A stretch of 64,000 nt of DNA from positions 619,239 to 683,238 of the forward strand of contig FN649744.1 of NCBI GenBank assembly GCA_000310025.1. The letters are read 5' to 3'. Positions 6,035 through 61,983 of this stretch are shown here, piece after piece. Position numbers and translations under genes: made by a program. Below the pieces are notes generated by a model, which saw nothing but the letters and a program-made list of their open reading frames with translations, was not told the DNA's origin and ran no database searches. Each line of letters begins with the position of its first letter. Positions within the stretch are counted from its first letter, which is position 1. The stretch comes from Ectocarpus siliculosus (Eukaryota; Sar; Phaeophyceae; Ectocarpales; Ectocarpaceae).

Positions 6035-6296
6035 TGTTATGGGATTTGAATGTAGCCAGTGCCAACGGTATTGCGGAGTAATTCCCAGAAGAAAGTGCGG
6101 GAGATGTAACTCCCGATGGAAGGATAAAACGGGGACAGGACCTTTGTGGCCTTTTAGAGGGAGCATGTCCTCCCCCTCTGTGCTCAGTCTACCTTTGAGA
6201 GCAAAGCAACAGCAAGCACTGCTGTTCCAAGAGATGATAAACAAGTGAGTCTTCATCAGGGTCTTCAGGGATCGCTACGCGTGTAATCTCACAACA
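6035..6296 (+). repeat. 5' LTR
   Basis: Starts TGTTATGGGATTTGAATG and ends TCTCACAACA. Aligns along its full length with 8042-8308 with scattered substitutions and small indels. The target duplication TGTA lies directly before it. Confidence 0.85.
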
Positions 6297-6965: not shown

Positions 6966-7023
6966 CAAGTGTGTGTGTCTTGGGATCTACCTGTGTGACG
7001 TGTGTGTTCTATCCCAGATGGAT

Positions 7024-8041: not shown

Positions 8042-8308
8042 TGTTATGGGATTTGAATGCGGCCAGTGCCAACGGTATTGCGGAGTAATTCCCAGAAGAA
8101 AGTGCGGGAGATGTAACTCCCGATGGAAGGACAAAACAGGGGACAGGACCTTTGTGGCCCCTTTTAGAGGGAGCATGTCCTCCCCCTCCGTGCTCAGTCT
8201 ACCTTTGAGAGCAAAGCAACAGCAAGCACTGCTGTTCCAAGAGATTAATAAACAAGTGAGTCTTCATCAGGGTCTTCAGGGATCGCTACGCGTGTAATCC
8301 CACAAACA
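8042..8308 (+). repeat. 3' LTR
   Basis: Second copy of the LTR, ending AATCCCACAAACA and followed by target duplication TGTA at 8309-8312. Confidence 0.85.
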
Positions 8309-8312
8309 TGTA

Positions 8313-9578
8313 CAACTGATAGGTGGGTTCGGGAGTATCTCAATGATTTCGTGCGTGGCAAGGACTGAAAAATAAATTCGGTCATTCACTCCTTCATTTA
8401 TTCACGCCCGAGGTTTGATGAACAAACGAGTCTCCAGTCAACAACAGCGAACAGTCTGCCCCTGAGGTAGACTGTATGCTAGCGCTCTCATTATCGCAGA
8501 CGATGTGTGCGTGTTGTCATGTCATTCTGACGAAACTCTTGACACCTTTCGTTATGGTTGGACTTCCCAGTCGAGCGGTGGCACACAGGGGAAGGAAGGC
8601 CACACATTGCCATGTTGTCCGCTTTCGTTTTCGGGTCATACACGAAAGTACAAAATGTATGCAGCCCCTAAAAAAGTCGTCACGACAACCGCGGGTGACA
8701 ATGTTTTCGGTGGAAACCGACAGCCCCGGGAGGGAACTATGGCCGCAAGGGATTTCGTAAGATAAGTGGATTGCTGTCCCTGAGGTGATTGCATCCACGT
8801 TGGTTGTTCGGAAACGCACTCTTTTAAAACACCCGCGTCGGACCTTTGCCGCGACGTCGGACTTTCGTGTCATCTCTCATTAACTGATCGAGCAGTGCGG
8901 GTTGATTGAGACCACCACGTGCGACAGTTTGTCCCATAGCGAACAACTGTGCGCAACACCTCTCGCGATCGCTAGGGCTACATCTGAATCTCTAGTGCAT
9001 GCCTATTTTAAGGCCACACAACAGTTTCCCTATTGTTTTACTTCTAGTACAACGATGGACGTGAGGCACGCAACAAATGGGGGCCAATGGAACGACGAAT
9101 AGATAAATCGGTATACGACACTGGTACACGTAGGTGGCAACAAAAGATACAACAAACGGGACGGGGAAGCAAAACAAAGAAGAGGTTTCCGTAGACCGTC
9201 GCCGGGAACAGGCAACCCTACTTCGACAAGCAAAAATCAAACGCCTTGGCTGTGTCTGAGAAAACATCCCCACGTTGAATACCACTTCTACTTTTGCAAG
9301 TGTTGAAAATAGCAACATCTGGTTGGACGGATACATACACTGCAGAAAGTCTTCGGCAGATCACAACCCGCACTTTAAATGGCCTATACATTGTAATAGT
9401 GCGGGATGCATAAAAGCGGGTTTGTCAGTGACAAGACTACCACCCACTCGCACCTACTTGTCACTGCCCGCCCTTTCTATTAATTGCGTGTCCGTCACTG
9501 CCCACGATAGAACCCTGTAGTTTCTGCTCGACGAAAGGAAGGCAACAAACCATTATCGCGAGAAAACATTCCCTGAAC
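8313..9578. other. 3' flank of the giant gene, no gene recognised
   Basis: No coding frame here has family features. On the minus strand this is downstream of the stop codon of the giant gene and must contain its 3' untranslated region. I see no clear AATAAA signal close to the stop. Confidence 0.4.
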
Positions 9579-11673
9579 TTAATAATCTGTACGTCGTTTT
9601 TCCCCTCGTTGCTGTAGCCTTGCCCGAGCTGTGCGAAGCCAACGGATGGCTAGTGCTTTACTCGCATCTGACAGCACCACCTCCGCGACTGCCCAATCTG
9701 CTGGTATGTCCTCGCCTTCATCGTCGGAAATATCTACTAGAACCGGAGGCCTCTTTCGTCCTGCTTTTCCCCAGACATTCTCTTGTGCCCGTCGGTACCA
9801 CTTCATTAGGATCGCCTTGGAGGCAGCACTGAGATATATTGGTCCCCAGTCGGGGTATGCGCCTTGATCTCCGTCGTCCTCACTTTCTTCCATGGCACCA
9901 TGAACGTAGCTATCCCGGGCCTTCTCCTTATTCTTGCTTATGCACTGTAAGCAAATGGTCTCGTACCGTTGATTCTGCATCCAGAAGCGCTTCCACGCCA
10001 CCTTCACGACCCGGACAAAACCATTTTCATTGCACAAAAATCTCAGCTTTCTGGTCATCTATAGGCCTCAACAAGTTGGACATGGGCCAGCGGGTATCGA
10101 ACAACGACCATTTTGTTTTTGGTTCATCACTTGAAATCGGCGCTCACGGCTCACAGCATTTCTACCGGGTAGGAGCTGCAATCCGCAGTCACACAGAAGG
10201 GTTCCTCTCCCTCCACCCCTCTTGCGGTGTTATCCTTCGATTAATAATGCGAGAAGAGTGCAGCACCCTCTTCCCTCAAAGTGTACACACGAACTAGTGC
10301 TTTTTCCACTACCAGGAACGGAAGCGAGAGAAACCTCATTTCTAAGCAAAAACTCGCTTACGCCGGGATTCGAACCCATGGCCCTGGCCGCTAGAAGTTG
10401 CGAGGAAAGCAGCTAGACTACGGGGCGACCGGGATCATTGTCCAAGATACACCCAGCCAGCACACCAAATAGAAGAAAACTTGCTGCATACCACATATCG
10501 TTATATGTGCGTGATATAACCGTCCGTTCGCGTCACACATAAACACGGAAGTAGGAGCCTATCATGTGGAGCGAAGTTCAAACAGAATTTTGTTTGAGCG
10601 CACCCCAACTGTTCAAAACAGTGATCAGCATGTGTCAACATTTCAACCTACACGCCGAAGAACATTTCCGTTCTTCCTCGGTGGACACGGTGAGGCATGC
10701 GCATGATGCACTGGCAAATCCTCAGCGGAAAATTGTCTACCACGCTGAGGGTTTGGACCAACAGAAAGTAATTGAGAAGGTATTGCAAGCACGGTTTAGA
10801 GAGCGATACCTGGAACGTCAGTGCAAAAGGTTTGTTGATTTTCTTTTTCACCTTGTCGAACTCGTCCGCAGGCTGTTCCGCTGCAAATTGAGCAGCCAAG
10901 TCCTCCAGTTCAAACACGAGTTTGGCCTGCAGCTGCTTTTTTGAAAGGCACTGCTCGCAATGTGTCCCCCGTGCTTTGTTGATCAGTGGTTGGACTGTTT
11001 CGCGAAGCTTTACCTGCGTCAGTGATTTCACGTGTTTTGCGACGCGGCTTACAACTGGGGATGGTGTTCTCGTGGTTACATATTTTCAAAGAGCAAGTTG
11101 CTTTACGTCATTGCAGATATCGAATATCCAGTTCCTGGACTAACAATGTTTTAAGCACCGACAAAGTGGATTTAGCACGGACAAACTTTTGTCCCACCGA
11201 AACGCGTTGATAGCATCATTCACCGACCGTGGTTGCTTTACAAGGGCACGCAAATCATCGTGCGCTACGGTATTCATCACCTGTTTTCTAGCTTTGGCCA
11301 GCCACCATCGTATAATCTTGCGTGATGTAGCCGTGAGGGCGACAGGTCCAAAATCTGGGGAATCGTCTTCACTGTCGGATGAAATATCCCGATTGAGCTG
11401 GTTCAAAATTCTTGAGAACTGGTTGATGAGGTACGGTCGGCTCCTCTTCAGTGTGCGAGGGGTGAGCATGGACGGGAGCTGGTTCACCAGCCAGGAGCGG
11501 TTGTAGTTGAGAAACTTGTAGCGAAATGTTTCGCTTGTAATTCGCTGGTTCATCAAGTACGCATCGTGGCTGGCACCCTTGAGGTCATCCATGTCTGGAA
11601 TGTCGAAGTCGTCGTCATCATCCACGTTCGAGTGCCAAGCGGTATTCTCGTGTTTGATCTTCCACATGTTCAC
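9579..11673 (-). CDS. Giant gene: cytosolic C-terminal tail (3 exons)
   Basis: Exons about 11180-11673, about 10851-11010 and 9579-about 10005. After the last helix comes NMWKIKHENTAW, an acidic patch VDDDDDFDIPDMDD, then RSWLVNQLPSMLTPRTLKRS. A Cys-x2-Cys (HCEQC) lies in the middle exon and another (ICLQC) in the last exon, so a zinc site may be split by the intron. The acidic block followed by (D/P)(W/F)(G/A)P, LSAxSKAI and RWLxxAR occurs three times (about 11310-11400, 9770-9890 and 9600-9720). The protein ends QQRGEKRRTDY with the stop at 9579. The tail probably binds partners inside the cell. Confidence 0.75.
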
Positions 11674-14600
11674 CTGCGCAGAACGACGTCCAAACAGGTA
11701 TACAAACCAAGCCAACCGTCATTGTTATCCATCCCAAGCTTTGTAGAGACTACGTGATCGGAATCAGGTACAGCGTAAAGGTATGAAAGCAGGCTTATTT
11801 GAAACAGACGCGTAAAACAATACGTTGAGCACGAACACCCACCTTCAGAGCTATCCAGAGAAGCAGCCACCCGGTCAGGTAGGCAATTGCTACCACGAAG
11901 GGAATCATGATCACGAGCAGCGGATCGCCCCACAAGTTGTATCTCTGCAAATAACACATAGACGAAGGAAGTTTGTAAAAGCCGTTGTGCCCCTCTTGAA
12001 ACACCGCACACCGCGGACATAGCACCAATCAGTTTTCTTAAAAGCTTCGAAAACGAGCGTTGCCCACCAGCGCTCTGGTGGTGGGACAACTCTCGGACAG
12101 TGCTCTCCCTGCTGTCACTTACCAAACTTGGCAGCGGAGGTCAAACACTTTCTTCGGGCAATGACAAACAGGTCAAAAAGGAGCTCTACAAGTTACATAG
12201 TCTCGCACACCTTTCGTATCATCATTTGCACACCCAGCACGAAGTAAACAATGCCATTGACGTGCACGGTCATCATCATGTAGTACTGAGACGAGAAGCA
12301 CATCTGGCAAGCAAGACAAGGATGAAACGAACGTTGGACGAGTACAACAGCGGGAGGTGGGGAGGTATCGTCAGGGTTTCGCGGTTTCCAAAATATGCGA
12401 GAATATTGGTCACAGCACTATCCGTGCCAAAGCGAAGGAATTAACTTACTTGGTTCGCTTAATTTTGCACGTACCTGATCCATGGTGCGCATACTCTCAT
12501 CTATGCACTCGTCCAAGCTGTCTTCGAGTCCTTTCCATCGAGTCTCCCGTTGCAGAAACCTGTATCGAGTGTACACCTACAAGCGAAACACAAGAGACGG
12601 TTGGTTTATTGGGAGTTAGCAAGATTGCATCCCAAACAACTTCACCACAGGAATTCGCCTGCAGTGAAAACGCACGGGGTACGAGCCATAGCTTCCTCAC
12701 CAGGTAGTCGTAGATCTTCCAGCCGTGAAAGAGCTCCAGCACGCCATGAATGAAAACGTCGACGCAAAGCTGGAAAAAAATAATGACGAGCGCAAACGAT
12801 AGGTAGTACTCCATATCCTGCACTTGAATGCCATAGAGGGATGGAAGCCCAACCTGTCGTAGAAAGAAAAAAATAGCATTCGAAGCAAAAACACGAGGAC
12901 GAAGTGAGAGAAGGGTACACGTATAACATGCGATACTTATGCTATCGCGTTTAGGTTTATTATCTGGGTTCTTTGTCCTTAACTTCGCAAATATGGACCG
13001 TATTTCGGTAGCCAACCTGTCACCACTGAAGGCGTGTGCTCAGCTTGGCCAGCACAGATGTTCCAAGGTAGGGCAGAGGCTGTAATTGTGCGGATTGTGA
13101 AGAAGACGAGCAACGACGCGGGTCACGGATATCGATCGAACCTACGTGGCCATGAGCTAGGCATCAGGCCTTTATACTGCTGTAAACATGTAAACGGTGA
13201 CTCACCTCGTCGCGGAAAATCATAAGCAGCACAATGATGTAGGGGTAGTAGAAGTTACTGAGGTTGTCAGTGGAATAGCCACCAAATGAACCAAGTATGG
13301 GCTCCACAGTTTCCGCTCCCTCTCCTATGAGGCCTTCCAGTTCGCGCTTCCTGCACAAGGAACCATTATTGAACGAGGTATGTGGGCATATAATTATCGA
13401 AGCCCGGCTACCGATCAAGGCCACGACGCTCTCCTGAAAGTTGGACCCGATCACCACTGTGAATCACTTGCACAAACCCGCTGGTACATCAACCACGTAC
13501 TTTGAAGAGCTGGCCGTCGTGTCGTTGGTGTCTTGCTTTACTGCCAAGCGCGCCGCCAACCAGATAGGCATCCGGTTTCTGATAGAGTCTTTAGCCGACT
13601 GGTACCTGCAAGTCAAGAGATAGGCATTGCACAGTAGAGTGGCGTAGAATGGAAGCAATTATTAAAGGAACCAAAAAAAGAGGGAAATGGTGATGTTGAA
13701 GTGACGCGCCCTCATTGAATCGCGAAATTGTGATGAACCGATTCTGTGGAAAGACGCATCCTCACATTTCTCCAATCGCTTCAAGGATGTCACCCAGCGC
13801 GGGGTCGATGTTGACTCGGAAGAGCATGATTAGTCCCAGGTCTACAAAATACGATAGCAGGAAGTCCATGAAGTCGTTGGCGCCCATCCCCGTGATGCCC
13901 ATCACGATACCAAGGCCAGTCCCTACCGGGGCTTCCAAGAGGACCTGCGTAAACATCGAAAGGATTAGTTTGTCTTAACCCTATATAGTCCATATATATA
14001 CTAGTATGTTTTGTCTTTGTTGTGGTTAGTAAAATAGCTGTCTCATGATCGATCCACAAAGAGCTCGCCGCAACCTCCACCCACCTCTTTAAGTTGGTAG
14101 CTGATGATATCACCGATGACCATGTGCAGTATGGTGAAACCGATGGATACGTACCAAATGTAGTTGCCGAAGTTATTCCACAGGGAGAACTCCAAGATGA
14201 AGAGTCCGAACAAACCCACAACGTAGGATGAAAACACCATGTTGCTTCGTCGCCAGGTCAGAGGAATCCACACCTGCCAACACCCAAAACATCGACACAT
14301 GATCAACTAGAGGGCACACCACCAGTCGAGTTGATTGGACAGCTCGAGGTGATTAGGAAACCAACACGGTTCAGTTCCATGGCGCCCCGTGGAAACTCGC
14401 TGCGGAATGGTGAGATGAAGCGTGCACTTGAATGCACACCTTCCTACCTGCTCCTTCTCGGCCCGAGCGTCGCGTTTTATCTCCAGTTCTTTGGCGCGCT
14501 TGCTTTGGCGATCAGGAAGAAATATCCGCGCTCCTTGCCAAATGCACACAGCGCTTACTGTGACGAAGCACACTCCCAGCCGGCCATACCTGAGGAATAT

Positions 14601-17600
14601 ATATGTAGGTTAGTGTCCGAAAGGGCTGTACGGAATAATTACGCACAGCAGTAAACTTCGCTTAAGTGATATATATTTATTTACCTTGGGCAATGCCTTC
14701 AAGACTCAGGGGATACATACTCACAACCACTCTTTTCGGTGAATGGAGGCGTTTGGTTGGGAGGGAAACAGGCGGGCGAGCCGTAACGTCGCTGAAAGTT
14801 GAATGGCTAGGGCCACTTGCGGATATCTTGGTGCAACCTCATCGCATACAATCAGAATAAGGTGCAGTAGAGGCATGTGGCTGCCTGGAAATTTTTTTGT
14901 TAACAACGAGAGGCGAGTTTTGTCAAGTCTACGATACTGCGAACTTCGTCCTCTAAGTCGCGAAGAGATGCTTGTACCTCCCCCCCACCTTAGATCTACG
15001 CTTTTGATTGGAGTTTGAGTGGCCCCAGGCAAAACATTGGAAAGAAGGTGCCGCATTTCGAAATATTGGCCATCGTCTTCTTTTGCGTACTAGACATGGG
15101 GAACGATTTTCCTCTGAACGAGAGCGGGCTTGTGTAGTGCACGACGCGGTCTACCGTCGTCATGAGGAGCACGGGTCTCACATCGTGAAATACGACTCGC
15201 TGACATTCAGCGCCGAGGGCTGCTCGCGAGAAAAATGTTCGAGTACCCAGGGTGATGTCCCTACAGAACGGGTTCTTGGCGGAAACAACTGTGCCGATAG
15301 GTCACAAGGGAGAGAGGGAGGATATCCGCAGCCGGCAAAGCTACTCGGATCTATTTATTTGCAATGGCGGGTAATGCGCAGAGCATGCCAAAGAATTTCC
15401 CCGGCTATCAACAGATTCTCGATGCATCCACCTGGCCTTAGCGTAGTTGTCGGGATCCACGGCCGTATCCATGTAGTGAAGTTTGTAGCTGTCGAGAACC
15501 CAGTCGGTTGTTTCGATGTACGGAGGGCCGTAGAGGAGAACGTACACCGCCATCGTCATGATCACGATGGGAACCAGCCCAAGCAGCGTGCCCGAGAAAG
15601 CCGGGGGGGCAATCAGGCTGAACATGCTCCAGAAGTGCAGCCGCGATGGATTTACAAGCTGGCCGTCAAGAAGAGAAACGGCATGGTCACCACCCGTCAG
15701 GTTGTGCTCAACAACGAGGCTCACACCACATAAGCACTTACGATTGTTAGTTCAGCCGCCCAGTCGGTATAATTTTATTCCAACGATGTGCCTCAGGAAG
15801 GATTTTCTCAAACGCGGATATTTGGCGTGGCGGAACAAAATTCCATATCCATCATCGCACAGAGTGGAGAGACTTAGTCCTCATCGATCTACGGAGAGGA
15901 ACCCGCAGGGTCTTAAAGGGCTGGCCGTGCACATAGGAAGTGTTAGCCGCGGTGTGATTTTGATGAACGGCTGGAGGGGGGTAACGACATACCGAGCGAA
16001 AATATTGGTGCGATCGCATGTAGTAGTAAAAATTTCCACCGCGTAGACACGGCCTTACAAAAAGAACATAATGCGACTACAAAAGTTTGATAGAGTCTCA
16101 ATAAACATTGCACAATAGCCACGGGCATTATGGTGGGTCGGTTGTAATACTCTGTGACTAGCTTCAGCAGGCGGGTGCCGGCCGGAACACGACTTCAGCC
16201 CACCTGTGTAGTGATGCGGACATTCAGCCAGTAAAGGGCTGCCACCAGCACTGACGTGCAGCCAATCACCACGAAGAGCGCAATGAAGACGGTGTTCTCG
16301 AAAGCGAACTTGATTATCAATTCCCAGTAGTCCAGCGGGTAGTACACCACGTTGAGTGTATAACCAACTTGAGACGGGTCCTTGTCGAAGTCATCAAACT
16401 TCAGTTTCGCGTCAATGATACGCTTCGTGCTAGTGTCTAATTGGTAGTAGGCGATGGTCAACGTCATCGTCCTGGGATAGCAAAGATCTGTGCATCCACC
16501 ACTGAACGTGTTTGCCGCTTTGCGATCAACCGAGATGGGCACGAAGACGTCGGATCCCTCTTCACGGGTTAGCGACGATATCTTATGCCCAGTGCCCGCA
16601 TCTTCATAGCCAACACGCGTCTCAGCTCGCCCCGTGAAGTCCTTTCCGGATAGAACACGATTCGGTAAAACATGGCAAATCATTTCGAACAGCAACCTTA
16701 GGAGGAAACAGTTTTTCAACCTGATTCTGCATTGGAACGTGCACAGTTTGTGCTGTCAGTGACGAAAGTACTCAAATCTCGTGGTGCGCAAGCCATGCTC
16801 GCGGTGCTAACGCAATGATCTGTAGACGGTTTGATCCTATAAATCATAAATCAACAGGTAGTGATTAAAGTTCCGGTGAACTTCGACCTTACTCGTACAT
16901 TTTGGGGAACGTGGAACACCAAGCATAGGTTTTATAGCAGCTGACCATGTGACGGACGACTGCCCAAAATGCTTCAGCGTTAGATCTCTGTAACAGCTGG
17001 TGGAGCTACACGTCCCCTGGTGGCATTAACGGTCGATAAACCCTCAACACAGCTGAGTCAATTATCAAGGACCACAGCAATAAGGATCTAAATGCGGGGC
17101 CTTGCGTGTGCTCATCATGGATATTGTTAATGTCAACATCTCATAAGCATACCTGCCATGTGATTGATTCACGAATGAGGTAGAAAATACTGTCTCCTGT
17201 CGCAGCTTCAAACCACCGCGGAGTAATGTCGACGCTCTCGAGCTCCTCCTTAGGAGTTGAAACAGAAAACCACGGCCAGTATACGGGTACAAGGATCAAA
17301 TGCCGATTGGGAATGCAATACAGAAGCGACTCACTAACTGTCGAGGGGAAGTTTCATGGATGCAACATGCTCGCGAGAACCGGGGTCAAATTTCAACAAC
17401 AGACACCTAGCCTTGCCTCATTTAACATGACCTACAATTACCAAGAACATAGAGAAATGGAGGTTAGAAATTGTCGAATTGGATGTGACGTGGAGGTTCC
17501 CTCTGTCCACCTACCTCGTACTGGCATTCGATGGAGTAGGTGCACCAATCTGCTATTGGCTTGTTTCCAACGTCCCACGGCCCGACGTGAACAACATCGT

Positions 17601-20600
17601 CTTCATGTGGAAACACAGGATGCGCATACCTGGAACGGCAAGGGAGAAAATCAAATACCTTAGCACCCTCACCTCCGTGTAGTTTTGCATGGAACCGTTG
17701 AGATGGGCTCGAAGTAGTTGGTATCTTGGAGAAGGCACGGAGACATGAAAACACCAAGGAATCGTTTCAGCGCTTACCGCCACCAATCTGAGTCGCGGTC
17801 GTCCGGCAGGGCGCACTGGCTACTCTCCAACAGTGCGTACACAGGGATGTGCGAGTCGAAACCACGGCAGTTGGAGAAGTAGGGCAAGTATGGTAGCATC
17901 AACTGCGAGAAGGCGTAGGCTGGAGTGCCGTCTTCGTTCACAGCATATTCGTCGAACACCTGGCGTGTTGGATTTTTCAAACAAAATCCAGCGACAGGGT
18001 AAGCTCAGATGGAAAAAGGGTGTTGGTGCAAATTCTCTCATGCGAAGGTTGACTTTTATTTCGTACCACGGCACACGCCAAGGAGTAAGTGTTCCCAAGC
18101 AAAGCCTACAACAGAGATCACTTCCACAAACGACGGGCTGACGACACATCGACGTCAAGAGGCCAGGAGTTGGGACAACAGCATGTTTTTCGCATTATGA
18201 AATTTCGGTACAAAAGGGAGACCCACATAGTCCAAACGACGACCAACCAAGCGCAAGTTTGCCTGCAGGGTGGCCTAGCTATATCGTGCCTCGCTACCCA
18301 TCATCTCACGATGTGTGCATACTCGCACACTCAATTGTCATGGTTAAGGCGGAGATCCCCCCCCCCCCCCGAAGGCGCGAACCTCGTGGAAAGTATCCTT
18401 CAACTCCTTCCCAAGCTCGTCAGATGCTGCCGGGTTGTCCCAGTAGTCGCTGGCTATCGCGACATTTTCTCGGTCTTCTCTCAGCCATGGAGTATCCATG
18501 TTTTGACTTGATGTGTTGAAACCCACCAAAACGCGGCCCTTCGAGAACTCCGCGTATCGGGGTGGCATGTTGAGAGGCGCTGAAATCGTATTCATGAGGC
18601 TCTCATAGTAGACGGCCGCGAAGAAATATTCCTGGAACGAAGGAGAAGAAAGGGTGGGGGAACGTCGACCGAGATCGGGTGGGATGCTTCGTGCACTAGC
18701 GATAAGCCGCAATACCACCACGCGCTGGATTTTTTCGATCTCTCAACTTCAGCCAGCCCCCTCCCCCGATCCTTGTAGTTACAATTGTCAGCGACACTCA
18801 CTTTCACCACCTTGCGCTCCTCGAAGGATACGAACGGGTTCAAAGCACGGCTCTCTGGAACAGTTCCCAGTCGAGTCTTCGCTCGACTGGGGGCCATCTT
18901 CATTAGGGTTGTGGTGTTTCTGAAGAAAGCTGCCGATGGCATAAACAGGCCGTGCATTATATGGACCTCCGTCTGTGGTGCGCCAGCGAAGAGAGAGAAC
19001 AACAACCGGGACTTTGTAATTTTCTTGGTTGCCGAAGCATGGAATCACTTTCAGTAAGGCGTCGGTGGGAAAATCGTAATATCAAATACCAGATATAGGC
19101 AGCGGAAGGAACAGCAGACAGCGTCAATACCGCATGCGTACCTTAAGTAAGACATCCTCCAAAGCGAAAATGGTGAAGTTGAGAGTCTGATTTTTTGGAA
19201 TGCTGGAGTCCAGAAACCCTGCCGGCATATCTAGTGGTTGGCGACAGGGTAACTTCTCTGCTGCCGGGAGGCGAATCCGGGCAGAATTGCAGACCTCGTC
19301 ATCGCATCTGCTAGGCGTCACGTATATGGCCAACTTGTAGTGTTCGTCGTACACCTGAAGATGACAAACAGGACGGAGAACGAAGCGTCAACATTCAAAA
19401 CGACAACACGCGAAATGAAGCAATTCGGGACCGTCAGGGTGTATTGAGGCACCTCAATGAGCTCGATCACTCAGTTCCCATGCACGCAAAGAAGATGAAC
19501 CCACCGGCGCACAGGAACCAAAAGGATAGCCACCACCATTCAAACTGGCATCACATTCTTATTAGCGCTGGCTTGAGTCGCGTCTCACCATGCTGGATGG
19601 AATATGTGACAGATCGAAGGACATTTGAGCGGTCTGCAGAGCCCGGAGAAGGAACCATCCCTGCTCCCGCTGTCTATCGCTCTCTTCGCTTATCCTTCTT
19701 GTCATGCACCTACGAGCATCCATGTCCGCCACTCTCGTATCGTCAAGCCAGTAGTCCTTTGAAGTTTGATACGAACGGTACAAAGAAACACGAGATCAGT
19801 AACAAACATTGTGCAATTGTTTGGTCGGCAGAACCGGTGCATCATGCACCTGGTGCGTGCATCACAGAGGTGCGTCCCATAGCAAACAAAACCCTATTCG
19901 GCGTCCGTACGCCCACCTCCAGCACGACTGTGTAGGTAGCAAACGTTGCATCCACAGTGTAGTCCATGTAGTTCTCTTCGGCCAGAGCACTGGGCAGAGT
20001 TGAGTGCGGGTAGAACAGGCCATCCCCACTGAAGATGGAGCCAGAGACTGACACGTCAATTCGTATCTGGGAAGAGCAGCAAGTTCATTGAGTGCCGAGA
20101 GCACAACGGAGCAAGAATTTACACCAAACGAAGAGACTCACCGGCATGTTACTCGGAAGCAGAGGTGATCAACTTCTAGGCGAGATGCCAACCCATGACG
20201 GCGCGTCACCGCCCATTCACTCCCAGGTGGTCTATCGAGGTACGGCAACCTAAACCCGCAGGGGCGGACGGGCGGTGCTACCAAACCTGGTTAGAGGTAG
20301 GTACAGAGGTTCTAGTGGGGTATCCTCTCCCGAGATATCCCAGGCCATTGAATACCCAGTACTAAGTCCACAACGCCCCCGAAATGCATTTCTACATCGT
20401 AGCGACCTCAATAAGCTTAATCCGAAACTAGACCCTGAAAACGAACCACACATCACGACACAACCAGCGCGAGTATTGAATTAGAACGCGTCAATCATTC
20501 ATTCCGCCTGAGTGACAGTAGCCATATCCAAGTCTCTCCGGCATGCCAGGTTCTAAAAGCATCCGCAAGAACCATCAAGCCCACAGTGTGTCCTCATCGA

Positions 20601-44600: not shown

Positions 44601-47600
44601 CTAGAAACCGATAATGACGAAGCAATTCGAACGACAACAAATGAGCGCTTTTTGAACCGTTTCACACCAGCGCTGATGGCCACGCGTCGAGTCGGGGTTG
44701 GGACATACCGTAGGTTGCATAAGATACCACACCTCCTGGACCGATTCGTATACTGTAGCCCGATCACCCCGCGACGAAGAGAATGCCAAAATCAAATGAT
44801 ACGTTTTCGGAAAGCTCTCGACGAGACGGTTCCAACGCCGCCATTTTCGGCCTAGCACTGCAAATGTGGAACAGTTATGGGAAACAACTTCACCTGGAGG
44901 GATACACTCTCGGTGTCAATCCCATGGAGCATGATTTGCCCGGATGCTGTATCGGTCAATATTCCAACCGTTAGGTTGCCTGTGGTCGCCGATATTCCTG
45001 TCTGAGTCTGGAGGAATTGATTCCAGATCCCAAACGCACCAAGCTTCATCACGTGATGATGCGGGGTGACTACTTTTGGGGAGTCATTGACCGCATCCAC
45101 CGTAACAGGTAGAACACCGACGACCTTCGTTGGGTAGTAGGGCACCAAAGGAGAGCGAACCATTGGGTAGCAGGCGCAGGAATGCTAGAAGAAGCATGGT
45201 CTGACGTGTTCTACCATGCAGGGTGCCAAGCATCAGGGCGATGAAGCCAAGACGGGCATAGAGATCAGGTAGCAGGCAACTGCCGCCTGGCGACCTCGGT
45301 TAGAGCGTGGGGACTCAAACGAGAGCATGTTGCCAAAGGTGGCAAGGGTCAAGATACAACGCAAGGGACCGTGCCACGCAGGCCTACAAAGAGCGGAGTG
45401 AGTCCGCGAAGCTCGGCAAGCCTTCGATCCACATTTCATAGGCGGGGTGGCGAGTCGATGAGAAGTAGAACATCTTTTTCTGCTCAACGACATGTAGCCA
45501 ATGGACCAAGAAATGCTCGTGCGATACTGCTGGTGCTTGTTGGGTGTCCGCGAAATCGCACCTTGACTTCGCTGGATCCTACTTGCCATACCGAGACCGT
45601 CAAGAGCTCTGCGTGCTGATGGCTGTTGAAGTTTTCATCTGGTACATATGTGAGCAGACCAACGGCTTCGTTGATACCCGTAAGAGTGCCCGTGAAGTAC
45701 ACGAAGCGATCGGAAATCCCCTGTCCTGTGGTGAACATCAGCCCCTTTTGCACACCCGGGGCGGCATCGATGCAAGCGTTCAAAAGAAGTGGGTCAGTGC
45801 TGCACATAGCACGTTCTCTCTCGGCCAGCATGCGTCGTTGTACTAACATGCATAAAAATAATCGGACTGGCTGAAACGCATCACCGTCGATATCCCGTTT
45901 GAGGTACACAATCTGATATTTAACTTCTGGCTATCCATGTGCCTGATACCCCGATGGGATGAACAAATGTAACGATGAATTACAAGTATGGAAGCGCTTG
46001 TGGCAACTGCAGACGTCTCTCTTGAAACCCTCACCGATGTTCCATTCAACGAGAGCCGCCCAGAGACAGCCTCAAGCCAAACGTCGAAGAGCAGCCCTTC
46101 GTCACCAGGTCTGGACACGTCAGCGTCGTACATGCCTAAACCACTGAGGATGAGCTCACCGTCTTCCTCGACGACAGGGCTCGTGGGAATCACAATCTCA
46201 GGAGCATCTGGGACTGACACCACAGTAATGATGACCTGTGTGAACGCGTGTTGAGGGATCTTTGAGCGCACGCTTTCTCGTGGCAGTGTGTCGCCTAAAC
46301 GCTGAAATCATGTGGTTCCGAAGTCCCTTCCAACCTGGTCAATGCTAAGGAGGTTTGTGCCGTTCTGCGGCCTCCAGTTCTTGATTCCGCCGCTCGAAGT
46401 ACAGTACCCAGTACACTTGATTGTACCGATTGAAACGTGTGTTTAACGTCCACAAACCGGAACCTGGTCCCATACGACAGCGTGGTGTAGCTTATCACCG
46501 TGTTGCCATCAACTAGGTCAGGTCGAGCGCTCTACGATGTACTCGACGTACCTGCTTTGTATCGGATTTGGCTTCTCCTGCCCCAAGATACATCTGGTCA
46601 TTCACTGTCAGAGTCAGCGTATCATTCCCGTACCTGTAATTGAGCCAATGGTGGCAATAGCAATCCACACAGACAACGTCATAGAACGTTTTTGTCATGG
46701 TTCATACCAAGCGCCAGCGTGTCGGATACTGCGGGCCGCGCGTGGTTTCTGTTGCAAGGGGGATGCATAAACGTGTGTCGTACAGTAATCTGGAACGTGC
46801 CAAGGGGGAACTCCGAGATCCACCGACGCTTTTGTGTCGTAAACATAACGAGCCCACAGCACCCACCAGTTGAAGTGCCCTCGGTATGATATGCTTCCCA
46901 AAGCATTACCGACGTTGGCAGCGGACCCGTGAAAGTATACGAGCTCATCCTCAACGCCGTCGCCAACGCTGAAACCGAGTCCATCAGTGCCATTGAGGGA
47001 CACAACCCCTTGCTCGACCGACAATCGAACGGCAAGCTCGTAGTTGGCCGAAACTTCCATATCGACATCTGAAACGCGTGCGCCAGAGATATATGTCTCT
47101 TCGTCCTCGTTGACACTGAAAGGGCCCGACGGCAAAATAACTTCCGGCTGGTTATTCTCAGCGTTCACCAGAACCAAGAGCTCCTCTCCTCCCTTCAGCA
47201 ATGGGGAGAAAAAACAGGCGTGTTTTTTCGTTTAGCAACGACTTATGACAGCTACAGCCCCTACAAGACTTCTTTGAAACATAGCCGGGCGTCGGTGCAG
47301 CTCATAGGGTGTCGGATGCGTAACTCATAAGATACCTATACATTTCCATGATAACAACCACGCCAAGAATACGATTGCAGCTAGCGGGCCGTGAAACAAC
47401 TCACGACGTCTAAATGAATGGGAGAAGCAAACGAGGCGGCTCGCGGTCGTGCAACACATGCTGACTTGCCTTTTGCCAAGTTTCACACTCGAAATTCACT
47501 GAAACTCACCTGAAAAAAACCGCCGACGCCGTTCAGCACGTACCACGGGACCGATCCGTGGGTACTGTCAGCTTTCCACTGAAGCGCCGCGGTGTGGCTA

Positions 47601-50600
47601 CCAGAAGCCAAACTCACGACAAGCAAACCTCGAAGTTCGCCAACCGCTCGCTGTGACCCATCTCGCTGGCTCGCAGAATGCCTGCGCATATGTCGAAACA
47701 TGGCACGCTCAAAGCTGACCAGTTGCTGCTGTCATAGGATCCGCTCGATATAATAATTTTGGAAACGAAAACCTGGAAACGAAACTCACACCACATGTAA
47801 CGGTGTTCCTGCAAAAGTGGATGCAGCAGTGTTGGCCTGATAAGTGGTGTATTTAGCTACTCCTGTTTTGACAGGGTCAAGTAATGACAAGTTTTCGTTT
47901 GTCAATCAGGACTACGTGTGCCACAGTGTCGCAGATTTGGTTAAGCACACAGGCACCCGGACAACACCAAAAGAGCGCGGGGGTAGATTCAGCATACTCT
48001 GCAGACGCAAACCTTCCTCCTGTCAGCTGCAATCTACCGCGGATGATCGAGTGCAGAACTACGATGGGGCCCGAACACAGGAACCGTCAGTATCGGGTCG
48101 AGGCTTAATCTCTCATGTTGGGACGAAAAGCCACCTGCTCTAGTTGAAACGATCAACGGAATGTTCTCGGTCTTTGAATTTTCTTGGTTGTTTCGGTCAA
48201 ACGTATCAACCTCTAGTTGTCAATCTCATTCAGCAGACAGCCGTGTGGTCCGCGACGTGCGCGGGAAGGGGGGGGGGGGTGTACTCATAGTCGTGCATGC
48301 CGTAGTCGTTAGATCATTGACCTCGCATCCCTACAAAGCCGGGAGGAGCACGCCGGGTTCTCACCGGACCAGGCTCTCACATCACCAAGCGCGAAGCACC
48401 GTGAGGTATTCGGCAATTCGCATGAAGGGTGTGCTGCATCCTACTAAGGGTGTTCGGCGTCTTGTGCTTACTTCCTTGCGTACGGATGACAGCTGCGTAT
48501 GACTTAATTTATTTTCTGGTGCTTTCACTTCCAGAGACAGTTGTAAGCACTGTGTAACTGCCTCGAGGAAGCTTGACCATTTTAACACAACGTGCGATTA
48601 TCCCCTTTGTGCACAGTGAGGGTTCTCCACCCCGCACAACATAATCTACTCGACCACCATCCATGGTTACCGCAAAAAAAAAAAAAGGCAAAAAAAAGAA
48701 AGGCAAAAAAAACCCGGTAACCTGGTTGCCGAGCTCACGAAGTGATCGACTTGTTGTACAACATCACTGCCAAGCGACGAAAACCCACCCCCGATGGCAA
48801 ACGCCGGCGAGGAGCAGGAAGGGGGAGGGGTGCAAAAACACCGCGCCCACAGAAAAAGTAAACGCACGTACTTCGGGGTGGCGGGGATGGGTACAGTAGT
48901 GACATGGGCAAGTTTCTTATTGGACACACTCCCGTCGATTCAATTTTATTTTTTCTTAGGGCGTCCTGGCTCCTGCTTCTCAACTGGGATGTTCTTGTCT
49001 TGATGCCCAGATTGGACTGTCTTTCTTCACCCCATGTTCTCATCTCCCACGAAATGTGAGCCTTTTTTCGCAACATAAAACACATTGCTCATTGTCACGG
49101 GGCCCATCTGTAAGAACATACATGACTACATCACGGGCACGCTATCAACTCGCTGGAGACACGTGGCAGTAATTATCATGCGCCCGTTCTTACCTGTACG
49201 GCACCCCATCGACCAGCAATCGCGCTTGGATAGAGCTCCAGCGTTCCCACGACCAAGAGTCAAAGGTTGGATGGCCATACTGTCAGATATACAAGAGTTC
49301 AGGTGAAATGTGGTCAGTTGCAGAGGGTCAACAAAACGTGAATCAGTCTTGGTCTCAGATCGTCATTCGGTGGTAGTACAATATACGTACACCTCACATT
49401 TCCTTATCCCAACACATCCTTGCTGAAACCACTCTTGTCGCTGATAAACCACGACATTGCTAATTTGTACCCTGCTCGGAGAAAGGTGCGTCCCACCATT
49501 GCATAAAAGGCTGAACAAAAGACACTCCTGTGTTTGGGCTTGTTCGATGCTACTGACCTGCGTGACGGGCAGTCCATAAGTGAAGAGTGCGGTGGCTGGG
49601 CCATGAAGATAGAACTCGAGCTGTTTTCCTCCTACCGTGTGCCATTCGTTCAGAGGGTCTTTGAGGACAACCGGAGTGAGGAAATTTTGTGACACCACGT
49701 CGAAGCGCTCTCCCATAGCAACGACGAAGCGCGACATGGCGAACCCGTCCAAGAAGGAGGGCGAGTTTCTCCAAGCTCGAATGTACGAGCCCCACTTGCG
49801 CCATTCTACCACCATGGTGTGCTCGCCGGCCTGCGCAGCCAGGGGGGACGGATCGCGTGAAAGTGGGGTTGTACCTCCGAAAACGACACTATCGGCGTTT
49901 ATCGCAGGTGTACGGAACGAACTCTTGACAAACCATCCCGAGATGGATACATCACTTCGAGCTTCCCTCCAGTTCTCAAGCCTTCTTTTGAGCCGGCTTG
50001 AACGCAGACGTAGTGGTGCGAAGATTTGAACAACAAAAACTCCTACAAGAGGTCGTTTCCACACCACACCAGAATACCGACGTGCGATCATGTCGCAACA
50101 ACCAATGTTGACGCGGTTCATACCTGGAGGCTCAGAACAATGTCTCTTTCGAGCATGCCGCTTTTCGCGTGCCGGGTTAGCAAAGCGTAGGAGCCAACCG
50201 ACTCGCGATATGGTACCCCATCCACTACCAGACGTGCTGACAGATCTTCCGCAGGGTGACTTGCTGAAAATTACAAAAAATAATTGGAACGGGGGTATAT
50301 CTTCAGGCTGAGAGGCCACTGGACATTGGGTAAAACCTATAGAAGCTCAAGCTAGGATCAACCTAACAACCTGATGAAATTTGGAAGCGCTGAGTTAGTT
50401 ACACCGACATCGCGTTGCTTGCATGGCTCCGTTCGGCCAAGTGATTACGTTTTCCCCAGGTCTCACCGTCGCTGTCGAAGTTTTGATCCGGCATGACTGA
50501 CATTGAGTACAGGACCCGGATACTGGCGGGCTCAGGTAACTCGAGTTGGAGTCTCAACCCAGGTATTTCGTTCCATGTCCCCGTTTGGTCTATTTGCACA

Positions 50601-52624
50601 TCATCGTTGCTCTCCGCTGAGTACCACATGTAGCGGTGCTGGTCAGCAGAAAGAACGAAGGGAAACAAGCATTGGTGCTCGTCATGAGTCGTTGGCTGGA
50701 GATGGAGATGTAACGCGATTTATTGGTGTCGTCATTGAGAAGGACAGCAAACCCGCCACGCTATGCCTTGGCGACCCCGGTGCTTGTTTGGTCTGCGTTG
50801 CCCGAGACATGTGGTGACAAGTACCCTCCATCTTAACTACATGCGACAAAGAGTCAGTCAAAAATAAGTTCAGTCCTCGAAGCAGAACCGATCGGTTTTA
50901 CTCGTGCAAAATGATGACATTGAGCAAGCGAGCTCTTATTAAACGAATAACTCTTGGTTTCTGCCCTATGGCTACACCACTGGAACTGCTGTAGGTATAC
51001 TCCCATTCATGGCAAGGAGAAGAGGTACTCACTTGAGCCGATACTACAATGGACCTTCCGCCGGCAAACCCGTCGTGGGAGCTTGGTCGATTGCTCCAAC
51101 TGGTGACAATCCCTCCAGAAGACTTTTTCCATTGTAGCCCAACCGAGTGATTCCCTTGCCCAAACTCCATCGATAGGTGGCCGCCAAGCGTATCAACGTA
51201 CGACTCGTATGGACCAGCAGGGGATGTGAATGCTGCCGATTGCCGCATTGGTAGCCCATTAACAACCAATCGCATCTGGAAGCACCAGTCAACGAGTGTA
51301 GGGTGTAATGTATGGAGTTGAGACCCGGAATCCACATATGGCCAATGAATATGGTTGGCATGCGAAGAAACGTGGAACCAACATTGCCTTGTACATGGTG
51401 CATAATCCTAAGACACACACCGATGGCCGAAACAGTTGCTTAAGGGCCACATCAAGATGCATGTTATTTACATAATAAGGTAGTTACGTGTTCTTCGCAA
51501 AATAACAGCAATAAATCTGCGACAGCACCACGCCAAAGACCTAGTAGTACACCCAACAACACCTGCAGAGGTACAGGCGCAACAATACGGAGTAAATATT
51601 CATTATTAGTTAGAAATTCTGCAGAGTTGAACACTTCCTGACGACAGACACCGTAACACGTTGGTGTGCCTACTAGTAGAGCATTTCGCTCTATTTTCCT
51701 CAAGCTCAGACGGTATCACGCGGCAATCAAGACTTGCGGTCGTCCGGCCAGTGGCTGGTGGATTAGAGCTCCTATTGCTACTTCGAAGTAGTTCAGTACA
51801 TGGTGCAAACCCTTGCTCCTCGTACAGTACCTGAAGGAAATCCTTGCTCCCACCGCTGCTACGCTGTTCTCCAAGAAAAGACGAACCAGGAAGCTGGGGC
51901 TTCGCCGCAACAACGACAATGCTATAGGATATCAAGGATGTTACTTCGCTTTCCAGAACAAGCTCAAGTTGGGTGTCCGGGACGTCAACCCATACTCCAG
52001 ACTCCTCCAGGCGACAGGCGGTTAGAGGCCGGGAGCTCCACATGAGCCCTGTACAGCAGTATGCATATGATGATAAATCAACATTTTCTGTGTTTGTTTG
52101 TTTCCTAGACTAATGTGCTTATGCACCCGTACTTTAGACCACAACTTTTCACAGCAGCGAGTGTAACAATCCAACAAGCGATGGATGAAGTCTAGACGAT
52201 GACAGATCTGCTAAGTCCAGTGCGACAACAACGCAGTACAACGGAAGTGCTATCACATGTATTAACCGGGTACGTCTCCCGAGGGCAACAACCTCTACTG
52301 CCGTAGCTGTAGCTGTAGTCTTGGCGATTGATTCACTGCGGTGAAATGAAGAATACTGCTTGTGATATGCATACGCGTATCCAAATGGGCGAAAATATCC
52401 AACGTGTATGCGAGAAATGCGGTGCATGTGTGTGATAGCGTCGAGTCCTACCATGCCACACCCAGGTGTCACGCTAGCCGCATGCAGAGCTACAGCGTAC
52501 AACAGGATTACTGACCGTCCCGCCCGTTGCTCGCGATTGCACCGCATACTCCCCAAAGGAGGGACGTCAATGCCACGGCCACTCCAGCCCACGGCGAGAG
52601 AAACTGAAGCACTCCATGCTTCAT
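9579..52624 (-). CDS. Giant multidomain membrane protein (about 9,400 aa): beta-rich units, CSPG, IPT/TIG array, GCC2/GCC3, ~10 TM
   Basis: I read one gene of about 45-50 exons from a signal-peptide exon (ATG at 52624) to a stop at 9579. Exons join in phase at nearly every junction I checked. Order: signal peptide; three beta-rich units (49.2-52.0 kb, ending 47.5 kb); CSPG/cadherin-like repeats (43.2-47.2 kb); about 62 IPT/TIG repeats, 55 of them in one exon (26061-41550); GCC2/GCC3 cysteine-rich array (22.3-24.9 kb); a multi-exon ectodomain; about ten membrane helices (11.8-16.3 kb); cytosolic tail (9.6-11.7 kb). The expected role is a surface adhesion receptor or channel whose long ectodomain senses or anchors, but no member I recognise fixes a function. 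A less likely alternative is two or more adjacent genes. Continuous phase and absence of stops argue against this, but 45.2-45.6 kb is unresolved. Confidence 0.75.
10105..10440 (-). mobile_element. tRNA-derived SINE, full-length copy (intronic)
   Basis: Read on the minus strand, it begins near 10440 with a tRNA-like head: an A-box-like TAGTCTAGCTGC and a B box GGGTTCGAATCCC (about 10365-10377). A body shared with the copies at 58.5, 5.35 and 0.48 kb follows. It lies in the intron between the two Cys-x2-Cys exons of the giant gene, in the same orientation as the host gene. Confidence 0.8.
11844..15690 (-). CDS. Giant gene: polytopic membrane domain (about nine further TM helices)
   Basis: Exons at about 15441-15661, 14447-14591, 14088-14277, 13762-13945, about 13510-13607, about 13206-13350, 12702-12853, 12479-12577, 12211-12307 and 11844-11946, in phase. 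Helices: LLGLVPIVIMTMAVYVLLYG; VCFVTVSAVCIW; VFSSYVVGLFGLFILEF; YIWYVSIGFTILHMVIG; DFLLSYFVDLGLIMLF; FYYPYIIVLLMIF; YYLSFALVIIFFQLCVDVF; MMMTVHVNGIVYFVLGV; and LLVIMIPFVVAIAYLTGWLL. Loop motifs LFHGWKIYDYL and RYRFLQRETRWKG, DSLDECIDESM look strongly constrained. With the helix at 16.25 kb the total is about ten. Ten helices would suit a channel or scramblase-like fold, but this is only a count. A polycystin fold (6 TM) fits less well. Confidence 0.7.
16204..20764 (-). CDS. Giant gene: membrane-proximal ectodomain and first TM helix (about 10 exons)
   Basis: Exons read at 20675-20764, 19917-20066, 19142-19354, 18802-18972, 18383-18631, 17778-17959, about 17690-17725, about 17514-17650, about 17153-17232 and about 16204-16645. 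Most junctions are phase 0. Segments include IRIDVSVSGSIFSGDGL, VYDEHYKLAIYVTPSRC, LHGLFMPSAAFFRN, VLVGFNTSSQNMDTPW, VFDEYAVNEDGTPAYAF and TMTLTIAYYQLDTSTKRI. The last exon carries YTLNVVYYPLDYWEL and then the first helix, FIALFVVIGCTSVLVAALYW. The ectodomain looks globular and Cys-poor. I cannot assign a family. The 17.65-kb junction needs an intron of only about 29 bp. Confidence 0.65.
20915..21914 (-). CDS. Giant gene: linker exon and last IPT-like domain
   Basis: Exon 21762-21914 encodes VDVCDKVEVSSRD and runs to PTGEVQ. Exon 20915-21388 (158 residues) opens VLEKIMPINESG and has IEVFRVCPEYGTQSASETTT, VIGRNFRDSDVLMCRF, then ISETRVECPIPEY, an IPT-like fold with an extra Cys-rich insert and a Cys-rich end. 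Both are in phase with their neighbours. Confidence 0.75.
22295..24471 (-). CDS. Giant gene: GCC2/GCC3-type cysteine-rich array (3 exons)
   Basis: Exons 23171-24471, 22626-22802 and 22295-22423, all in phase. The array repeats C-P-x-G-(F/Y/H)-x-C about 20 times: CPAGFVC, CPTGHFCPEG, CPVGFYCG, CPPGTFC, CPSGYTCPSYG, CDAGYYC and CPVGSYCPDG. This is the GCC2/GCC3 (ephrin-receptor-like, TNFR-like) signature, extracellular and disulfide-bonded. The 23171-24471 exon alone encodes 434 residues. Such arrays often stand next to the membrane part of large protist surface proteins. Confidence 0.85.
24813..25845 (-). CDS. Giant gene exon: three IPT repeats and start of the cysteine-rich array
   Basis: Joined in phase to the 15.5-kb exon (GTA|GTG). 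It encodes three more IPT repeats (VTPPTGATSGGTEVLV, IWPVLGPASEGGTVVTV, VRPTQVLETGQVPVMV). After FVQDWVPTLSPNGTYC it enters the cysteine-rich part, with GSFQPLSGTGRCLPCPVGFM. The donor at 24812 (GTGCGT) splits an Asp codon completed by the next exon. Confidence 0.8.
26061..41550 (-). CDS. Giant gene: single 15.5-kb exon with about 55 IPT/TIG repeats
   Basis: Uninterrupted coding for about 5,160 codons, from NAVSMAKDTRVVL (phase-0 acceptor near 41550) to the donor GTAAGT at 26060. By eye I count about 55 IPT/TIG (Ig-like, plexin/transcription-factor) repeats of 85-95 residues. Each has P..G...GGT.V.V.G..F, then L.C.FG, then a strand like VPARWLS and a C..P end. Some lack parts, for example the repeat starting LITSVSTAYDN. 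One short non-IPT insert (about 32380-32510) contains RKSSMRCALEEAEVN. Such arrays form rods in plexins, fibrocystin-like and protist surface proteins. The exon is striking beside neighbours of 100-250 bp. Confidence 0.9.
36850..40010 (-). repeat. Higher-order repeat: four copies of a three-IPT super-unit (about 787 bp)
   Basis: Three IPT types alternate A-B-C. A carries NF(V/I)D and (V/S)(P/S)ARW(L/V/I)S. B carries (F/W)(F/S)(F/S)GLR.RFG and VPVTFVS. C carries PSRGS(V/I)AGG and SVRG. The B-type LR.RFG segment falls near 39628, 38842, 38058 and 37265, intervals of 786, 784 and 793 bp. The copies have diverged in protein sequence, so the amplification is old. Confidence 0.75.
41811..43213 (-). 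CDS. Giant gene exon: three IPT/TIG repeats plus a phage-tail-like domain
   Basis: It starts after an AG at 43213 with VSVGDGSLAGIERSVFEVSL, the end of the CSPG part. Three IPT repeats follow: IISVEPNQISPEG, VLSIWPDAGPACGG and VESVSPETGSAES. The last 110 residues or so (about 41830-42215) differ: RGHQYWLDQSDASNFGHPIA, a Gly-rich loop, GVQ, then VPMDAPDVLYMYSEAS and LEHGI. This follows the order of a cupredoxin-like fold common in marine phage tail proteins (Y.FDQSD.SN.GHP..FS ... VP..AP..LYYYC..H..MG), but the Cys and His positions typical there are replaced here (MYSEAS). The exon ends at 41811 with a GTAGGA donor. Confidence 0.75.
43240..47195 (-). CDS. Giant gene: CSPG/cadherin-like repeat region
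   Basis: Supported exons: about 46867-47195, 46552-46633, 46035-46232, about 45599-45745, 44894-45123, about 43556-43682 and about 43247-43300. Hallmarks are VNAENNQPEVILP and SVPDAPEIVIP (the xDAPxI start of Ig-like CSPG repeats), NEDEETYISGARVSDVD and EEDGELILSGLGMYDAD, then FHGSAANVGNALGSISY and FTGTLTGINEAVGLLTYVPD, and YGNDTLTLTVND. This is the RHL-like CSPG repeat pattern (F.G....N.AL..L.Y.P..); about four repeats are visible. Such repeats are extracellular, calcium- or ligand-binding in other proteins. Between 45.13 and 45.59 kb I could not settle the exon that must link the blocks. Confidence 0.65.
43690..44890 (-). other. Intron of about 1.2 kb in the CSPG region
   Basis: Lies between the exon ending TESVSLQ (44894) and the exon starting VVDGATYG (about 43682). 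Short frames in it lack coding features. No repeat or RNA gene recognised. Confidence 0.45.
47510..51994 (-). CDS. Giant gene: three tandem beta-rich extracellular units (exons 2-8)
   Basis: Exons read at 51831-51994, 51033-51275, 50467-about 50616, 50124-50263, 49558-49830, 49194-49279 and 47510-47681. Each unit has two halves. Half A has a W-x2-(I/V)-P/G-x-(Q/L)L-x-L pattern followed by a strand like VLYSMSV or ALFTYGLPV. Half B has a strand like ARLVVDGVPYRES, a variable loop, then GxHxVxLxWxKxG, WxNxPSxxDGFA and GR-type end. Unit boundaries match exon boundaries in phase. This looks like a jelly-roll-type ectodomain repeated three times, the third copy being more diverged (PWYVLNGVGGFF). 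I do not recognise a named family. Confidence 0.7.
47690..49190 (-). other. Long intron (1.5 kb) carrying an inserted repeat
   Basis: It separates the half-B exons 49194-49279 and 47510-47681, which join in phase 2 (AG|G). About 580 bases of it are the C-run repeat copy 3. No other gene is seen in it. Confidence 0.6.
48268..48850 (-). repeat. Interspersed repeat ending in a C-run, copy 3 (inverted, intronic)
   Basis: Reverse complement of the 3300-3835 repeat. It begins on the plus strand with 11 G residues, then tgtactcatagtcgtgcatg, through the block with accaggctctcacatcacc, and ends beyond gagctcacgaagtgatcgac. An A-rich patch near 48673-48715 corresponds to the T-rich patch of copy 1. 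It sits in an intron of the giant gene, with the repeat reading in the same direction as the host gene. Confidence 0.75.
52516..52624 (-). CDS. Giant gene exon 1: signal peptide
   Basis: ATG at 52624 opens MKHGVLQFLSPWAG, then a hydrophobic core VAVALTSLLWGVCG, then AIA-SNG, a good signal-peptidase site. The exon ends in phase 1 at a GTCAGT donor at 52515. It is the only strong signal peptide on this strand directly upstream of the repeated extracellular units, which is why I place the start here. The next exon (51831-51994) joins in phase to give V-WVDVPDTQLEL. Confidence 0.7.
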
Positions 52625-54095: not shown

Positions 54096-54098
54096 CGC

Positions 54099-54245
54099 CT
54101 ACAACGAAGGACCCCCCCCATCCCGGGCCACCGCAGCTTTGACACCGCCATCTGCCGCACCATCGGTTGAGGGAGAGTTCCCAAGCTCGCACAAGCTTTC
54201 GAGCATCGTGAACTCTTGCTCCGGATTGTCCTTTTTATTGGTCAC
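54099..54245 (-). CDS. RING-CH/FHA gene: terminal exon
   Basis: An acceptor after ATGCAG opens VTNKKDNPEQEFTMLESLCE, followed by an acidic/Gly-rich tail GAADGGVKAAVARDGGGPSL and a stop. It is in phase 0 with the FHA exon ending at 54669. Low complexity makes the call moderate. Confidence 0.5.
   Translation of the reverse strand: MTNKKDNPEQEFTMLESLCELGNSPSTDGAADGGVKAAVARDGGGPSL

Positions 54246-61918: not shown

Positions 61919-61983
<65 letters not shown>

What the first reader, a model, noticed from the sequence alone, without database searches (positions are those of the whole stretch)
9579..52624. A roughly 9,400-residue mosaic membrane protein joining CSPG, IPT/TIG, GCC2/GCC3 and a ~10-TM domain
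The sequence shows phase-compatible exons from a signal peptide to a cytosolic tail. IPT arrays and GCC2/GCC3 arrays are known separately in surface proteins, but this order with about 62 IPT repeats and an unnamed polytopic membrane domain is unusual. It could be a flagellar or cell-surface mechanosensor or adhesion receptor of stramenopiles; that role is inference.
Basis: partly seen in the sequence, partly recalled or inferred. Interest (0 to 1): 0.85.

Follow-up and report, generated by a model that had tools for sequence, protein, structure and literature searches.

The report
Giant algal surface receptor, CRMP-like
This looks like a real gene for a giant algal cell-surface protein, a long stalk of 62 repeated modules on a cysteine-rich neck and a many-pass membrane part; it has a sister gene in the same genome and is built like the proteins that malaria-type parasites and ciliates use to trigger secretion.

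Summary
A hint-guided minus-strand model runs from ATG 52624 to a stop at 9579: 39 exons, 8,576 aa. It has a signal-peptide-like start, an unnamed N-terminal region, a cadherin-like region (not CSPG), 62 IPT/TIG repeats (own HMM; Pfam alone sees 53), a GCC2/GCC3 block with 19 CxxGxxC motifs, a hydrophobic polytopic region and a 325-aa tail. TIG and GCC repeats share one open exon. A 5,199-codon ORF carries most of the stalk.

New here: a paralogue on C12 (approximate model 13,628 aa, 65 TIGs, 19 CxxGxxC motifs) with the same order and a related membrane core, which argues against chance neighbours. All 91 TIG matches listed for this genome lie at these two loci. No Pfam family or PDB sequence convincingly matched the core.

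The closest described kind is the CRMP family (apicomplexans, ciliates; homologues named in Dictyostelium): variable giant ectodomain, ephrin-receptor-like repeats, nine helices in Toxoplasma and Plasmodium, long cytosolic tail; in Toxoplasma an A/B pair needed for rhoptry secretion. I read this gene as a CRMP-like contact sensor with an IPT stalk. Homology to CRMPs could not be tested here; function is inference.

The parts
9579..52624 (-). whole gene: 39 exons, 38 GT-AG introns (30 of 38 in phase 0; median 352, max 1892 bp), 8,576 aa guided model
   Evidence: intron statistics
52516..52624 (-). exon 1: start codon and signal-peptide-like start (hydrophobic run at residues 13-31)
47510..52048 (-). 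unnamed N-terminal region that by eye looks repeated; no other match in this genome at E<=0.01; no Pfam match
41811..43213 (-). exon with TIG repeats 1-3
   Evidence: Pfam 3 stretches, own HMM
26091..41571 (-). 15.5-kb exon, 54 TIGs wholly inside; lies in the open frame 25998-41597
   Evidence: own HMM by exon; Pfam 25 + 22 stretches
24813..25845 (-). exon holding the last three stalk TIGs and the first GCC2/GCC3 repeat (weak in Pfam) in one open frame
22295..24471 (-). GCC2/GCC3 (Ephrin_rec_like) block, 4 exons; most of the 19 CxxGxxC motifs
16642..21914 (-). membrane-proximal spacer with the isolated 62nd TIG (exon 20915-21388)
11843..16641 (-). polytopic membrane core (12 hydrophobic segments by crude scan; 10 in the paralogue), no convincing Pfam or PDB match; about 26% identical to the C12 paralogue; loop exon 13206-13456 uncertain
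9579..11673 (-). tail, 325 aa, by eye three acidic/SxAL..WL..AR type repeats and CxxC motifs; similar pieces in order in the C12 paralogue

Best explanation
One gene encodes a giant polytopic surface receptor. Shown or strongly supported: a signal-peptide-like start; a stalk of 62 old, diverged TIG modules, 46 of them with exactly two cysteines; a GCC2/GCC3 neck; a hydrophobic membrane core; a tail; and a paralogue with the same membrane-proximal order. Inferred: it works like the apicomplexan/ciliate CRMPs, which their authors read as contact sensors. The stalk reaches out and binds a surface or partner cell, the cysteine-rich neck passes force or conformational change to the membrane core, and the two paralogues may pair as CRMPA and CRMPB do. 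The tail then recruits cytosolic factors that start a contact response, most plausibly local exocytosis (adhesive or wall material of settling swimmers, or at gamete contact).
For: TIG and GCC in one open exon. The same order TIG - GCC - spacer - core at a second locus: 32% identity across last TIGs + GCC (E 1.6e-135) and 26% across spacer end + core (E 3.5e-72). Independent of the window model: the C12 core as a query hits this locus in 4 places, E 1.8e-12, 1.6e-5, 0.0011, 0.041. Only these two loci for the core were found in the genome. Tail: best piece E 2.3e-7, with further pieces (E 0.034, 0.019, 0.002) in the same order. Published CRMP plan: cysteine-rich domains, 9 TM, C-tails of 478 and 565 aa, A/B complex, block of rhoptry secretion on loss (PMC9815656 section 6, section 11 part 1, passages); cytosolic C-terminus, two Tetrahymena members needed for mucocyst discharge, reading as a contact sensor (PMC9670195 section 6 and passages). 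Babesia relatives: PF07699 with 8-10 TM (PMC9843837 passages).
Against: No CRMP sequence could be fetched, so homology of the core to CRMPs is untested. The window core as query did not hit C12 at E<=1 (0 of 14 rows), and the window tail as query found only itself at E<=10 (3 of 3 rows). My hydropathy counts (12 and 10) are not the published 9. CRMP numbers vary: four in Plasmodium, Babesia and Theileria, many in Chromera and Paramecium, and Tetrahymena members have five predicted TM, so 'two paralogues' is weak support. TgCRMPa and PfCRMP1 are called GPCR-like and carry kringle and MAR domains; no such match appeared here. IPT and TIG have 0 occurrences as words in PMC9815656. Ferlin domains were not found (PF08150, PF08151), though those searches rang nowhere and do not show absence. 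Nd proteins are called alveolate-restricted.
Confidence: 0.5

Rival explanations
1. Flagellar or cell-surface mechanosensor/ion channel: the stalk is a tether that gates the polytopic core.
For: Long stalk on a core with 12 hydrophobic segments. The genome holds meckelin-like exons, a ciliary transition-zone protein by recall, which hints at flagellate stages.
Against: No match of the core to a channel family in Pfam or to a PDB sequence at E<=10 (a two-sequence profile, so weak).
Confidence: 0.2
2. Cell-cell adhesion or self-recognition receptor without an exocytic role (gamete recognition, wall anchoring).
For: TIG modules are common in adhesion proteins (recall). The paralogue has Laminin_G_3 matches at its N-terminus, and Ectocarpus male gametes are reported to have lectin-like receptors on the anterior flagellum (PMC4700764 passages).
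Against: A polytopic core with a long tail related in both paralogues is more than an anchor needs (inference).
Confidence: 0.22
3. Two or more neighbouring genes read as one (secreted TIG/GCC protein plus a separate membrane protein).
For: No transcript available; the GCC-to-membrane link rests on predicted splicing, and hint-free models differed at both ends.
Against: The same order and a related core at a second locus; the GCC and core exons were joined in hint-free runs too; no intron over 1.9 kb; TIG and GCC in one exon.
Confidence: 0.05
4. Member of the meckelin/TMEM67 family (cysteine-rich ectodomain plus several TMs).
For: Similar general plan (recall).
Against: No PF09773 match for the core in either paralogue at E<=10; separate meckelin-like exons sit on C9.
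Confidence: 0.03

Closest known systems
Cysteine Repeat Modular Proteins (Plasmodium CRMP1-4, Toxoplasma CRMPA/CRMPB, Tetrahymena CRMP1/2, Babesia GDP1-4; homologues named in Dictyostelium)
   Same: large variable ectodomain, ephrin-receptor-like/GCC2-GCC3 or EGF-like repeats, multi-pass membrane part, long C-terminal tail, core conserved while the N-terminal part varies; two members in Toxoplasma and other coccidia
   Different: 62-65 TIG stalk (PMC9815656 names a putative Ig-like fold in some CRMPs, but no IPT/TIG); unnamed and LamG-like N-termini; no kringle match in the pieces scanned; core homology untested; photosynthetic alga
REJ-type protein of Ectocarpus (Esi0130_0068, PMC4700764 passages)
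   Same: large ectodomain on a polytopic membrane part
   Different: REJ and GPS domains, 6-7 TM; neither domain matched here
Meckelin/TMEM67
   Same: cysteine-rich ectodomain and several TMs (recall)
   Different: no Pfam match of the core; separate exons in this genome
GCC2/GCC3 array model on C16 of the same genome (3,088 aa)
   Same: GCC2/GCC3 repeats
   Different: no TIG match listed on C16 and no similar membrane core seen in the 27 kb read

Membership tests
CRMP | several cysteine-rich (ephrin-receptor-like/GCC2-GCC3 or EGF-like) domains next to the membrane core | tested here: met
   PF07699 in two exon pieces (one over cut-off), 19 CxxGxxC motifs
CRMP | 9 transmembrane helices near the C-terminus (Toxoplasma, Plasmodium; 5 predicted in Tetrahymena) | tested here: inconclusive
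   12 and 10 hydrophobic segments in the two paralogues by a crude scan
CRMP | long cytosolic C-terminal tail | tested here: inconclusive
   325-aa tail with similar pieces in order in the paralogue; sidedness not shown
CRMP | sequence homology of the conserved core to known CRMPs | not testable with these tools
   no CRMP sequence or profile is held; no PDB match, and no CRMP structure was solved when PMC9815656 was written
CRMP | A-clade and B-clade pair forming a heterodimer through the membrane part | not testable with these tools
   two paralogues found; dimer not modelled
CRMP | role in regulated exocytosis | not testable with these tools
   ferlin searches uninformative
IPT/TIG repeat proteins | PF01833 matches over cut-off | tested here: met
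   53 stretches at E<=0.1 in the four exon pieces scanned, every piece over cut-off
CSPG/FREM type | CSPG (Cadherin_3) repeats | tested here: not met
   only Cadherin_4 matches
Meckelin | PF09773 match of the membrane core | tested here: not met

The most novel reading that the evidence does not exclude
A photosynthetic alga carries a CRMP-type A/B pair in which both partners grew stalks of 62 and 65 TIG modules (about 8.6k and 13.6k aa). The contact-triggered secretion switch known from apicomplexan invasion and ciliate discharge, with homologues named in Dictyostelium, would then also work in algae, serving surface attachment or gamete contact of swimming cells.
Probability: 0.25. Interest if true: 0.8.

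Novelty: new variant of a known kind. Interest (0 to 1): 0.62.

Why it matters
If the core is homologous to CRMP cores, a machine known mainly as a parasite invasion trigger has an algal counterpart outside alveolates, and its function becomes testable in a free-living organism beyond ciliates. Even without that link, two giant paralogues hold every TIG match listed for the genome and share an unnamed polytopic membrane domain and tail.

Tried and rejected
CSPG: Pfam gives Cadherin_4 only. Meckelin: no PF09773 match of the core; separate exons on C9. Other folds for the core: Pfam gives only PrgI (E 0.25) and Fun_ATP-synt_8 (E 4.1), taken as chance; no PDB sequence at E<=10. Other GCC loci as further family members: parts of C2, C82 and two places on C16 were read; no TIG match is listed there and I saw no similar core, but exon-wise searches can miss one, C2 held 3,317 N, and one of the three C82 GCC matches lies beyond the stretch I got. 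Viral contigs: no relative of the core or tail; prokaryote contigs: no relative of the tail. Recent tandem expansion of the TIG array: rejected; mean pairwise identity 26% (max 43%), 14 reciprocal best pairs with the paralogue, not collinear; TRF lists no array between 1978 and 48675. Ferlin partners: not found, uninformative.

Those aimed at TIG/GCC proteins listed none whose title or abstract start describes a TIG + GCC2/GCC3 polytopic protein; 62 and 77 were swamped by other terms, a slash cannot be searched, and subscription journals are missing. Passages only: PMC12223298, PMC4700764, PMC6019070, PMC9843837. PMC9670195: section 6 whole, plus passages. PMC9815656: section 6, section 11 part 1 of 2, plus passages.

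Full report
Setting. The window is C19:619239-683238 of a 189-Mb, 492-contig genome, photosynthetic by 87 PF00504 matches.

The gene. On the minus strand an open frame of 5,199 codons (25998-41597) translates largely as IPT/TIG repeats. A small splice-aware predictor trained on the long open frames was run without hints and with peptide hints. The last gives 39 exons, 8,576 aa, ATG at 52624 and stop at 9579; all 38 introns are GT-AG (the predictor allows little else), 30 in phase 0. Hint-free, the model either fused with neighbours (1123-62364) or lost the first exons and parts of the membrane and tail exons (50503-11103). Exon ends in the N-terminus, the 13206-13456 loop and the 3-nt exon at 44733 are unsure.

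Domains. Residues 1-31 signal-peptide-like; about 50-406 an unnamed region that by eye repeats, with no other match in this genome at E<=0.01; 407-682 cadherin-like; 716-6594 61 TIGs; GCC2/GCC3 block with 19 CxxGxxC motifs at 6647-7168; spacer with TIG 62 at 7276-7381 (own HMM; weak in Pfam); core from about 7777; tail 8252-8576. The 62 TIGs average 26% identity to each other, and 46 of 62 have exactly two cysteines, so the stalk is old rather than freshly amplified. TIG and GCC meet inside one exon (24813-25845), which needs no splice model, though the GCC piece there is under Pfam's cut-off.

The paralogue. PF01833 in the whole genome lists 91 matches, all on C19 or C12 (a lower bound by the tool). 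The C12 model (561185-645015) has 13,628 aa in 100 exons, 65 TIGs at E<1e-3 with the window-trained HMM, Laminin_G_3 matches at the N-terminus and also 19 CxxGxxC motifs. The region holds 4,128 N in 85 kb and the model begins about 185 bases from the edge of what was fetched, so it is approximate. Its order is also TIG - GCC - spacer - core - tail. Last TIGs plus GCC align at 32% identity, spacer end plus core at 26%. In the tail the best piece has E 2.3e-7 and three more with E 0.002-0.034 lie in order (13 rows at E<=10). The TIG arrays are not collinear. Independent of the window model, the C12 core hits this locus in four places, E 1.8e-12 to 0.041; the reverse query found no C12 row at E<=1, and the window tail found only itself at E<=10. 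Two loci with the same composite order make one gene far more likely than neighbours.

What it is. No Pfam family convincingly fits the core and no PDB sequence does at E<=10. The published plan that fits is CRMP: cysteine-rich repeats, 9 TM, long tails, variable large N-termini and a conserved core (PMC9815656); cytosolic C-terminus and the authors' reading as a contact sensor (PMC9670195); Babesia members listed with PF07699 and 8-10 TM (PMC9843837). CRMPA and CRMPB of Toxoplasma form a complex, with a heterodimer predicted through the membrane parts, and are needed for rhoptry secretion. Loss of two Tetrahymena members impairs mucocyst discharge. Two cores in this genome parallel that pair, but Plasmodium, Babesia and Theileria have four CRMPs, Chromera and Paramecium many, and Dictyostelium homologues are named. 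It is a parallel in anatomy; homology is untested.

Mechanism. Shown: the parts and the paralogue. Inferred: surface placement and topology, binding by the N-terminal and stalk modules, transmission through the neck, pairing of cores, signalling by the tail, and a contact response such as exocytosis. Against: ferlin domains not found (uninformative, as nothing rang in the controls), Nd factors called alveolate-restricted, no kringle match. The mechanosensor and pure-adhesion rivals remain open.

Verdict. Observation confirmed apart from the CSPG label and the exact length; interpretation partly supported; new variant of a known kind.

Noticed in passing
window about 55041-55690, minus strand: An FHA domain (PF00498, E 2.9e-11) and, by eye, a RING-like cysteine stretch upstream of the gene on the same strand. 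The peptide comes from the fused hint-free model; the flank-only model (53856-62364, 293 residues with stop) leaves the FHA part out.
   Followed up: partly
C12:561185-645015 (L001-L009): Paralogue model of 13,628 aa, 100 predicted exons, with Laminin_G_3 matches at the N-terminus and long unnamed stretches rich in EVQ-type motifs in mid-protein.
   Followed up: partly
C16:3824689-3850982 (L014, L016, L017): A separate GCC2/GCC3 array model of 3,088 aa, with Calx-beta-like sequence by eye near its start; no TIG match is listed on C16.
   Followed up: partly
C9:4847001-4849117: Meckelin-like exons (PF09773, 3 rows, 2 over cut-off, best E 1.2e-5), a hint of a ciliary transition zone.
   Followed up: no
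window 9579-11673: Tail with acidic DISSDSEDD-type runs, SxAL..WL..AR repeats and CxxC motifs by eye; resembles tails I recall from other stramenopile proteins, untested.
   Followed up: partly
C92, C232, C488: Clusters of light-harvesting (PF00504) matches with the same score, 10, 3 and 5 rows respectively, as if near-identical copies.
   Followed up: no
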